Below the pieces are notes generated by a model that saw only the letters and a program-made list of their open reading frames with translations, was not told the DNA's origin and did no database searches. Of a stretch of DNA of 64,000 bases, positions 24,303 through 45,644 are shown one piece after another. A program made the translations under genes and the position numbers. The stretch covers positions 62,001 through 126,000 of the forward strand of contig NZ_BJNG01000018.1 of NCBI RefSeq assembly GCF_006539565.1. The letters run 5' to 3'. This DNA comes from Pseudonocardia hydrocarbonoxydans. Its GTDB lineage: Bacteria > Actinomycetota > Actinomycetes > Mycobacteriales > Pseudonocardiaceae. Every line of letters begins with the position of its first letter. Position 1 is the stretch's first letter.

Positions 24303-24959
24303 ATGAGCGAACGACAGATCACCGGGATCCTGGGCACCAAGCTCGGGATGACCCAGGTCTTCGACGAGAACAACCGGGTGGTCCCGGTCACCGTGGTCCA
24401 GGCGGGCCCGAACGTGGTGACGCAGGTCCGCACGGCCGAGAAGGACGGCTACGTCGCCGTCCAGCTGGCCTACGGCGCCATCGACCCGCGCAAGGTGAAC
24501 AAGCCGCGCACCGGGCACTTCGGCAAGGCGGGCACGACGCCGCGGCGCCACCTGGTGGAGCTGCGCACCTCCGACGCCGCCGAGTACACGCTCGGCCAGG
24601 AGATCACCGCCGAGGTCTTCTCCGACGGCGCGACGGTCGACGTGGTCGGCACCAGCAAGGGCAAGGGCACCGCGGGCGTCATGAAGCGCCACGGCTTCCA
24701 CGGCCTCGGCGCCAGCCACGGTGTGCAGCGCAAGCACCGCTCGCCGGGCTCCATCGGCGGCTGCGCCACGCCGGGCCGCGTCTTCAAGGGCATCAAGATG
24801 GCCGGCCGCATGGGCGTCGCCCGCGTCACCACCCAGAACCTCACCGTGTTCCGGGTCGACGCCGAGCGCGGCCTGCTGCTGATCAAGGGTGCCGTGCCCG
24901 GTCCCCGTGGTGGCCTGCTGCTCGTCAAGACCGCCGCGAAGGGTGGTGTGACCGCATGA
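24303..24959 (+). CDS. rplC: 50S ribosomal protein L3
   Basis: Encodes 218 residues of L3, an early 23S rRNA binder whose loop reaches the peptidyl-transferase centre. [13 protein letters not shown] at the N-terminus and the long extension around [20 protein letters not shown] are diagnostic. The stop overlaps the rplD start (ATGA). Confidence 0.97.
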
Positions 24960-25852
24960 CCACGACCGTGAAGGCAGACCTGCCCGCGCACGTCTTCGAC
25001 GTCACCGCGAACGTGCCGCTGATGCACCAGGTGGTGGTGGCCCAGCTGGCCGCCGCCCGCCAGGGCACGCACGACACGAAGACCCGTGGCGAGGTCCGCG
25101 GCGGCGGCAAGAAGCCGTACCGCCAGAAGGGCACCGGCCGCGCGCGCCAGGGCTCGACCCGCGCGCCGCAGTTCACCGGCGGCGGTGTCGTCCACGGCCC
25201 GACGCCGCGCGACTACACGCAGAAGACGCCCAAGAAGATGAAGGCCGCCGCGCTCCGCGGGGCCCTCTCCGACCGGGCCCGCGCGGGCCGCGTCATCGTC
25301 GTCGACTCGCTCGTCACCGGCGACGCGCCCTCCACCAAGGCCGCGCGCACGACGATCGAGGGCCTCGTCAGCGACGCCGCGCACCGCGTGCTCGCCGTCG
25401 TCGGCCGTGAGGACGTCGTCAGCCAGCTCAGCCTGCGCAACCTGCCGACCGTGCACCTCATCGCGCCCGACCAGCTGAACACCTACGACGTGCTCGTCAA
25501 CGACGTCGTGCTGTTCACCGAGGAGTCGCTCGAGACCTTCCTCGCCGGGCCCGTCGCGGCGCCGACGCGGAGGTCCGCCGCCGCGGCGCAGCCGCAGGGC
25601 CTGCTCAAGAAGCCCGCGGCCCCCGCCGACGACGCCGCGCCGTTCGGCCCGCAGAGCCACGCTCCGCTGGCCGACGGTGGCCAGCCGGAGGGCTTCCCCG
25701 TCAAGGGCAACGCGGACTCGATGCTCTACCACGTGCCGGGCAGCTCGTTCTACGCCCGCACCGTGGCCGAGGTCTGGTTCGCCACCGCCGAGGCTGCCGA
25801 GGCCGCCGGCTTCCAGCTGCCGCCGTCGCAGCGTGAGAAGGAGGGCAAGTGA
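24956..25852 (+). CDS. rplD: 50S ribosomal protein L4 with C-terminal sunset-type domain
   Basis: Encodes 298 residues, about 90 more than a standard L4. Residues 1 to ~200 are ordinary L4, including the loop that enters the exit tunnel ([20 protein letters not shown]). After a Pro/Ala-rich linker, residues 245-295 form a small extra module with [22 protein letters not shown] and AEAAEAAGF. The same module ends L17 in this window (41 of 51 residues identical). It matches what I know as the sunset domain, seen in the ArfC channel accessory protein of mycobacteria. ATGA overlap with rplC; GTGA overlap with rplW, so the tail is read through without a frameshift. Function of the tail is unknown. 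Confidence 0.93.
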
Positions 25853-26151
25853 TCCCCGATCCGCGGGACGTCCTGCTCGCGCCGGTCGTCTCCGAGAAGA
25901 GCTACGGGCTGCTCGAGGAGCGCCAGTACACCTTCCTCGTGAAGCCGGACGCGAACAAGACCGAGATCAAGATCGCCGTCGAGAAGGTGTTCGGCGTCAA
26001 GGTGCTCTCCGTGAACACCCTGAACCGCAACGGGAAGCGCAAGCGCTCCCGCACCGGCTACGGCAAGCGCAGGGACACGAAGCGCGCGATCGTCACGCTC
26101 TCCGAGGAGAGCCGGACGATCGACGTCTTCGGTGGCCGGGCAGGGGCGTAG
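25849..26151 (+). CDS. rplW: 50S ribosomal protein L23
   Basis: Encodes 100 residues of L23, which sits at the tunnel exit and docks trigger factor and [22 protein letters not shown] and the basic [20 protein letters not shown] segment are typical. GTG start overlapping the rplD stop. Confidence 0.96.
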
Positions 26152-44873: not shown

Positions 44874-45644
44874 ATGCCTCAGCCCACCAAGGGGGCCCGC
44901 CTGGGCGGGTCACCCGCGCACCAGCGGCTGATCCTGGCCAACCTCGCGACCTCGCTGTTCGAGCACGGCCGGATCACGACGACCGAGGCCAAGGCGCGCA
45001 AGCTGCGTCCGTACGCCGAGCGTCTGATCACCAAGGCCAAGGTGAACGACCTGCACAACCGTCGCGAGATCCAGAAGGTCATCCGCGACAAGACCGTCGT
45101 GCACCGCCTGCTCGCCGACATCGGACCGTTCTTCGCCGACCGGCCCGGTGGCTACACGCGGATCACCAAGACGCTGCCGCGCAAGGGCGACAACGCCCCC
45201 ATGGCCGTGATCGAGCTGGTCTCGCAGAAGACGGTCACCGACGAGGCCAACCGCGCCCGCCGCGCGGCGGCGTCGCAGGCGGCCACCACCTCGGCCGCCG
45301 AGGCGGCCGAGGAGGCGTCGGAGAAGGCTCTCGAGGCCGCGGCCGAGGCGCCCGAGGGCAGCGAGACCCAGGAGAAGGCGCTCGACGCGGCCGAGGCCGC
45401 CGAGGACGCCGCCGACTCCGCCGACGCGCCGTACGGCGAGGGCAGCCACGCCCCGCTGGACGACCCGCAGGAGGCGCCGGAGGGCTTCGAGATCAAGGGC
45501 AACGCCGACTCGATGCTCTACCACGTCCCCGGCTCGCGGTTCTACGACAACACCGTGGCCGAGGTCTGGTTCGCCAGCGCCGAGGCCGCGGAGGCCGCCG
45601 GGTTCTCGCTCCCTGCCTCACAGCAGGACAAGGACGAGTCCTGA
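44874..45644 (+). CDS. rplQ: 50S ribosomal protein L17 with C-terminal sunset-type domain
   Basis: Encodes 256 residues, about twice E. coli L17 (127). Residues 1 to ~120 are ordinary L17 ([33 protein letters not shown]), located beside the tunnel exit. A long Ala/Glu-rich linker (about 120-185) leads to a module at residues 203-253 with [22 protein letters not shown] and AEAAEAAGF, almost the same as the tail of L4 here. The identity of the module as a sunset-type domain is from memory. The stop overlaps the likely CTG start of truA. Confidence 0.93.

What the first reader, a model, noticed from the sequence alone, without database searches (positions are those of the whole stretch)
25631..25852. 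L4 carries an extra C-terminal sunset-type module, shared with L17
L4 residues 245-295 and L17 residues 203-253 (45480-45632) align with 41 of 51 identical residues and no gaps; the similarity also extends upstream (SHAPL). The core [14 protein letters not shown] and TVAEVWFA are identical. Both sit behind Ala/Pro linkers on ribosomal proteins of the large subunit, L17 beside the tunnel exit. I associate this sequence with the sunset domain known from mycobacterial ArfC; its role is unknown. Two ribosomal proteins with the same appendage suggest a common ligand, a ribosome-bound sensor, or a recent copying event.
Basis: partly seen in the sequence, partly recalled or inferred. Interest (0 to 1): 0.8.

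Follow-up and report, generated by a model that had tools for sequence, protein, structure and literature searches.

The report
Mobile folded tail on ribosomal proteins
In this Pseudonocardia-like bacterium two ribosomal proteins end in the same small folded domain on a floppy linker; the domain is already catalogued but its job is unknown, and related bacteria carry it on other core machines too, which suggests a shared docking handle.

Summary
Both proteins pass NCBIfam's cut-offs for 'L4/L17, sunset domain variant', so they are catalogued; no paper on the domain was found in the held library. AlphaFold2 gives a confident ~55-residue fold behind a disordered linker. In Pseudonocardia the domain is about as constrained as L4 itself (pN/pS 0.29; core 0.35, linker 0.87), yet optional: on L4 in 28 of 60 genomes, on L17 in 48. 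Besides NCBIfam's hosts (L4, L17, L20, S2, ArfC) I found it on L22, S16, ATP-synthase gamma, NuoC and NusA. Four-cysteine relatives link it to the Ada zinc domain, whose cysteines it lacks. A C. acnes ribosome paper found no density for the uL4 extension, 'likely disordered'; that protein contains this domain. Best reading: a detachable docking handle for a common cytosolic partner (inferred, 0.42). Recent L4-L17 copying is not supported.

The parts
24956..25852 (+). rplD (uL4) with C-terminal sunset domain, 298 aa
   Evidence: NF051449 432.7 bits, cut-off 385
25541..25645 (+). Ala/Pro-rich linker of uL4, about residues 196-230; predicted disordered at 212-225
   Evidence: pLDDT under 50 at 212-225; aa identity 0.46, pN/pS 0.87 in 28 L4 sequences
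25646..25825 (+). folded sunset module of uL4, about residues 231-290, including the SHAPL segment
   Evidence: pLDDT blocks 90-95; separate model mean pLDDT 84.8; NF051437 core at residues 249-287
25849..26151 (+). rplW (uL23); its GTG start overlaps the uL4 stop codon
   Evidence: coordinates; identity as uL23 by eye
44874..45644 (+). rplQ (bL17) with C-terminal sunset domain, 256 aa
   Evidence: NF051448 339 bits, cut-off 280
45222..45443 (+). Ala/Glu-rich linker of bL17, about residues 117-190
   Evidence: aa identity 0.58, pN/pS 0.76 in 34 sequences
45444..45626 (+). sunset module of bL17, about residues 191-251
   Evidence: NF051437 at residues 207-245, 75.8 bits

Best explanation
The module is a self-standing ~55-residue domain, probably of Ada-like ancestry without the metal cysteines, hung on a flexible linker at the C-terminus of L4 and L17. 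It most likely works as a detachable docking handle: it sticks out from the ribosome and is bound by one common cytosolic partner, the same partner (or another sunset domain) that binds the cytosolic tails of sunset-bearing membrane proteins and, in other Actinomycetota, the copies on ATP synthase, complex I and NusA. The effect would be to place or hold ribosomes near other machines or the envelope, optionally and perhaps conditionally. Shown here: the sequence, the predicted fold on a disordered linker, purifying selection, acquisition by unrelated machines, presence/absence within the genus. Inferred: binding, the common partner, the localising effect.
For: Confident fold behind a disordered linker. 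In an unranked genus set the L4 domain is at least as constrained as the L4 core (identity 0.86 against 0.82, pN/pS 0.29 against 0.35) while the linker is variable (0.46, 0.87). In 91 domains on different hosts H, E, F, A and G positions outside the search pattern are also invariant (K, G, N and S are partly invariant by construction, because the scan asked for [IV]KGN[AE][DGQ]SML). Hosts are parts of several large cytosol-facing machines. Of 41 other sunset ORFs with a predicted membrane segment, 22 of 29 without the Cys pair score with the domain in the cytosol and 10 of 12 with the pair score as exported. C. acnes uL4, which holds the domain, showed no density for its extension, as expected for a tether.
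Against: No partner was found. In 5 of 60 Pseudonocardia genomes (G515, G525, G528, G551, G555) the ribosomal copies are the only sunset domains detected at E 0.001, so a membrane sunset partner cannot be required there. G511 (97% complete) has no sunset match at all. L4 and L17 copies show no matched co-variation. In L17 the domain is less constrained than the core (pN/pS 0.48 against 0.29). Five Cys-less membrane copies score as outside and two are tied. No docking experiment or interaction prediction could be run.
Confidence: 0.42

Rival explanations
1. Intragenomic mobile tail that is tolerated rather than used: C-terminal copying onto highly expressed genes, with conservation only for folding or solubility.
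For: Patchy presence in one genus (28 of 60 on L4, 48 of 60 on L17); near-identical L4 and L22 copies in one MAG (54 of 56 aa, L095); 20 host changes on the domain tree against a least possible 6.
Against: The L4 domain is kept about as strictly as the L4 core while the linker beside it varies; H, E, F, A and G positions stay invariant across hosts.
Confidence: 0.28
2. Nucleic-acid arm: the domain keeps an old Ada-like nucleic-acid role and gives the ribosome an extra RNA contact.
For: Four-Cys relatives hit the Ada zinc domain at 39-49 bits (cut-off 23), and Cys-pair relatives sit on SNase and DUF559 proteins. Six ribosomal hosts and NusA work with RNA.
Against: The cytosolic form lacks the cysteines; hosts include ATP synthase gamma and NuoC and LGFP proteins, which are not nucleic-acid proteins. 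The window domains carry more Asp/Glu than Lys/Arg (sequence).
Confidence: 0.2
3. Regulatory sensor or degradation handle: a small ligand or a protease adaptor binds the domain and controls activity or turnover of the host machines.
For: Shared by several abundant machines; Lys and His invariant in the 10 Cys-pair domains aligned and in the cytosolic set.
Against: No linked regulator or adaptor was looked for systematically or seen. Lys is also invariant in exported forms, which argues against a cytosolic Lys tag such as pupylation.
Confidence: 0.1

Closest known systems
NCBIfam sunset domain NF051437 and its exception models NF051449 (L4), NF051448 (L17), NF051450 (L20), NF051451 (S2), NF051433 (ArfC)
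   Same: The window's L4 and L17 pass the domain cut-off and their own variant cut-offs.
   Different: The models name the domain; no function was shown to me. The L22, S16, AtpG, NusA and NuoC proteins scanned here matched their plain host families plus the generic sunset domain, with no variant model of their own among the hits. The L20 and S2 proteins found here stay under the variant cut-offs (203.7 of 375; 402.9 of 710).
Ada N-terminal zinc domain (PF02805; 1wpk)
   Different: The window domains have no cysteine, so no Ada-type zinc site or methyl acceptor. Direct profile comparison is weak (30.6% probability; Cys-pair set 83.4% over 19 columns only).
Cutibacterium acnes uL4 C-terminal extension (8crx, PMC10085706)
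   Same: Contains the domain (E 2.3e-22, residues 231-289 of 301).
   Different: The passages I read call the extension solvent-exposed and 'likely disordered' for lack of density; they do not name a domain there.
ArfC of the mycobacterial arfABC operon
   Same: Same domain on a short membrane anchor: the Mycolicibacterium arenosum protein L105 scored 164.1 bits (cut-off 100). This genome has an ArfA/OmpATb-like gene (85.3 bits, cut-off 81) upstream of a membrane sunset gene.
   Different: ArfC is a membrane protein; the window copies are on ribosomal proteins. The own-genome membrane sunset gene stays under the ArfC-sunset cut-off (67.1 of 100), its N-terminus hits the ArfB model under cut-off (31 of 40), and the small ORF in the ArfB position has no NCBIfam hit.

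Membership tests
sunset domain (NF051437) | score over the curated 27-bit cut-off | tested here: met
   76.8 bits (L4) and 75.8 bits (L17)
50S ribosomal protein L4, sunset domain variant (NF051449) | whole-protein score over 385 bits | tested here: met
   432.7 bits
50S ribosomal protein L17, sunset domain variant (NF051448) | whole-protein score over 280 bits | tested here: met
   339 bits
Ada zinc-binding domain (PF02805) | score over the Pfam gathering score of 23 bits | tested here: not met
   no hit for the window L4, L17 or isolated L4 domain
Ada zinc-binding domain (PF02805) | four metal-binding cysteines | tested here: not met
   no Cys in either window domain; four-Cys relatives L225, L226, L229 do score over the cut-off
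Ada zinc-binding domain (PF02805) | same fold | tested here: inconclusive
ArfC, sunset domain variant (NF051433) | whole-protein score over 100 bits | tested here: not met
   76.3 (L4) and 85.9 (L17) bits: shared domain only
common-partner docking handle | specific binding of the domain to one partner | not testable with these tools
   no interaction data; needs a pull-down

The most novel reading that the evidence does not exclude
A general addressing system of Actinomycetota: one small Ada-derived domain, copied onto the ribosome, ATP synthase, complex I, NusA and the cytosolic tails of envelope proteins, lets a common partner gather transcription, translation and energy machines at the same place in the cell.
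Probability: 0.14. Interest if true: 0.88.

Novelty: new member of a known kind. Interest (0 to 1): 0.6.

Why it matters
An optional domain that is kept about as strictly as the ribosomal protein that carries it, and that recurs on ribosome, respiratory and transcription parts, is unusual. If it is a shared docking handle, it would show bacterial machines being co-addressed by a common tag. It also changes how the 'disordered' uL4 extension of published C. acnes ribosome structures may be read: likely a folded domain on a tether.

Tried and rejected
Recent copying or gene conversion between the window's L4 and L17: not supported. Copies group by gene in Pseudonocardia and matched pairs are no more alike than shuffled ones (12 pairs p 0.73 and 9 pairs p 0.91; 18 pairs p 0.995). 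Intragenomic copying is visible elsewhere (L095).

Obligatory membrane sunset partner: rejected as a strict rule (5 of 60 Pseudonocardia genomes have ribosomal copies only).

Tunnel-exit-only function: disfavoured by S2, S16, AtpG, NusA and NuoC hosts. The positions of these proteins on the ribosome are recalled, not computed.

My own first constraint estimate (L4 sunset identity 0.92, pN/pS 0.17) was too strong. Its sequences were the loci ranked best by likeness to the window's L4 domain and had to match a search pattern inside it. I repeated it on all 28 Pseudonocardia L4 genes over the NCBIfam cut-off and 34 of 48 L17 genes, chosen without regard to that ranking: 0.86 and 0.29 for L4, 0.82 and 0.48 for L17; leaving out the 9 pattern columns changes little. 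The report uses these values, and the odds were lowered slightly for it. They are uncorrected proportions, and the sequences passed a model that includes the domain.

Phage or plasmid origin: the L4 form found nothing in the phage records or viral contigs (118 pattern matches, none confirmed). The Cys-pair form found Bacillus phage G (two records of one phage, E 4e-4) and 13 plasmid records, of which those with an annotation under the match say hypothetical protein or DNA/RNA non-specific endonuclease and seven show none.

Disordered or low-complexity tail: not supported. In one search the pTM is only 0.55 and the L4 loop 38-88 is also low. Foldseek against PDB gave nothing useful. Paper searches for the domain and for L4/L17 extensions gave no description in the listings; most subscription journals are not held. 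The arfABC search led me only to a reference-list entry on the ompATb operon.

L4 and L17 sunset copies co-occur in the genus (26 both, 1 L4 only, 22 L17 only, 8 neither among 57 genomes after leaving out G505, G520 and G539; Fisher p 0.027), but without correction for kinship, so I do not lean on it. In G505 and G539 no L4 or L17 was matched at all, so '28 of 60' and '48 of 60' are lower bounds; the 14 control genomes gave no match over either cut-off.

Other limits. The 80 genome-contig loci are the best 80 of 219. The domain tree is a quick one with 69 columns, 8 of 88 inner branches starred; one row labelled 'other' (L111) is probably L4, and one AtpG row falls inside the L4 group. In the topology count ORFs matched to a machine host, rows with E over 1e-6, exact duplicates and the S16 and NusA frames were dropped; the two NuoC frames stayed in; orthologues such as L130-L134 count several times; L105, an ArfC, was scored outside probably because upstream non-coding residues were included. 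In the phylum sample the matches in G280 and G222 were not fetched, L227 and L228 gave no domain in my own search, and the host of L009 was not identified.

Full report
Observation. L4 (24956-25852, 298 aa) and L17 (44874-45644, 256 aa) share 41 of 51 residues without gaps at the stated places; 100 shuffles of the L17 tail gave at most 15. Both proteins pass NCBIfam's cut-offs for the generic sunset domain and for the L4 and L17 'sunset domain variant' models. Pfam gave no hit on the domain in the window. So the kind of thing is catalogued. Searches of the held papers for the domain's name found nothing relevant.

Own genome. The host looks like a Pseudonocardia (97% domain identity to two Pseudonocardia contigs). 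The genome has five sunset matches: L4, L17, one on a protein with a hydrophobic N-terminal segment (L003), and two at one place on contig C3. On C3 an ArfA/OmpATb-like gene (85.3 bits, cut-off 81) lies upstream of a membrane-anchored sunset gene. Against it, the sunset gene scores under the ArfC-sunset cut-off (67.1 of 100) and the small ORF between the two has no NCBIfam hit.

Fold. AlphaFold2 on 91 domain sequences gives mean pLDDT 84.8 with three short strands and two helices. In full-length L4 with 25 sequences, residues 231-290 score 90-95 while residues 212-225 fall below 50. This is a folded domain on a tether; the overall pTM is 0.55. The only PDB sequence matched is C. acnes uL4 (8crx and five further entries). 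I read passages of the C. acnes ribosome paper PMC10085706: they state that the uL4 C-terminal extension is 100 residues longer than in E. coli, solvent-exposed, without density and 'likely disordered'. The domain lies at residues 231-289 of 301, inside that extension.

Selection. In 28 L4 sequences (window and 27 Pseudonocardia genomes), amino-acid identity is 0.82 (core), 0.46 (linker) and 0.86 (sunset), with pN/pS 0.35, 0.87 and 0.29. In 34 L17 sequences the values are 0.89, 0.58, 0.82 and 0.29, 0.76, 0.48. The L4 copy is thus about as constrained as L4 itself, the L17 copy less than its core, and both far more than the linkers. An earlier estimate from similarity-ranked loci was stronger and biased; I do not use it.

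Distribution. Within the genus (60 genomes) the domain is on L4 in 28 and on L17 in 48, and some sunset domain is present in 58. Eight tail-less L4 and six tail-less L17 genes that I fetched end in or after the linker, so the module is optional. In a sample of 396 Actinomycetota genomes 39 have a match; by the hosts I could classify, 8 of these 39 have it on a ribosomal protein, NusA or NuoC (G000, G031, G085, G097, G113, G214, G316, G353).

Hosts. The best 80 of 219 genome-contig loci gave 89 domains, scored as L17 29, L4 25, L22 17, AtpG 7, S2 1, L20 1 and other 9 (the tally also counts the two window rows). All 7 AtpG frames pass the ATP synthase F1 gamma cut-off. L22 (L079, L008), S2 (L091) and L20 (L006, L110, which score identically and look like one protein) pass their plain families. 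S16 (L237) and NusA (L209) pass NCBIfam or Pfam cut-offs. NuoC (L213, L221) stays under the NCBIfam cut-offs but passes Pfam Complex1_30kDa at 112.5 and 118.5 bits, cut-off 22.5. One 'other' (L111) is probably an L4 with two sunset domains, since it directly precedes L23.

Copying. On the domain tree host labels need 20 changes against a least possible 6, so the module probably moved between genes several times; the alignment is short and 39 of 88 inner branches are open. In one MAG the L4 and L22 copies share 54 of 56 residues (L095). In Pseudonocardia L4 and L17 copies form separate groups and matched pairs are no more alike than shuffled ones, so the window's pair is an older duplication.

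Compartment. Of 72 distinct sunset ORFs not assigned to a ribosomal, AtpG, NusA or S16 host, 41 have a predicted membrane segment (30 none, 1 too short). Of 12 with the Cys pair, 10 score as exported; of 29 without it, 22 score with the domain in the cytosol, 5 outside, 2 tied. The scoring is a simple charge rule. Two LGFP-repeat proteins (PF08310) score as carrying the domain on a cytosolic tail.

Mechanism. A conserved fold on a variable linker, moved between unrelated machines and present on predicted cytosolic tails of membrane proteins, fits a docking handle for a common partner best. Binding, partner and effect are inferred. Against it: no partner was found; five genomes have only ribosomal copies; no co-variation between L4 and L17 copies; one genome (G511, 97% complete) has no sunset match. 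The tolerated-mobile-tail and nucleic-acid-arm rivals remain open.

Verdict. The L4/L17 variants are already in NCBIfam.

Noticed in passing
L055, L082, L083, L086, L088, L100, L107: ATP synthase F1 gamma subunits of Acidimicrobiia and related MAGs carry a C-terminal sunset domain; 7 of 7 pass the gamma-subunit cut-off TIGR01146.
   Followed up: partly
L209:504-2024; L213:1-2682; L221:2-2548: NusA (one genome) and NuoC (two genomes of one genus) open frames carry a sunset domain; in NuoC it lies behind a very long acidic linker.
   Followed up: partly
   Followed up: partly
L246:5053-6549 and L004:1318-1680 (genome contig C3): Two sunset domains lie next to each other in different frames; in at least seven sampled Pseudonocardia genomes (G508, G523, G538, G547, G549, G556, G559) two neighbouring sunset domains share one open frame. 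Frameshift or assembly error in this genome, not resolved; orthology not checked.
   Followed up: partly
L108:3-2786: A 928-residue open frame of an Acidimicrobiales MAG with three sunset domains and a hydrophobic segment near its end.
   Followed up: no
L111:2-397: Probably the end of an L4 with two sunset domains in tandem, just upstream of L23; the contig starts inside the gene.
   Followed up: partly
L003: The sunset gene with a hydrophobic N-terminal segment lies downstream of a photolyase-like gene (recognised by eye).
   Followed up: no
control genomes; Bacillus phage G 444235-444360: The sunset model also scores over its cut-off in Bacillus subtilis (protein not identified), and Bacillus phage G gp605 has a Cys-pair relative.
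   Followed up: no
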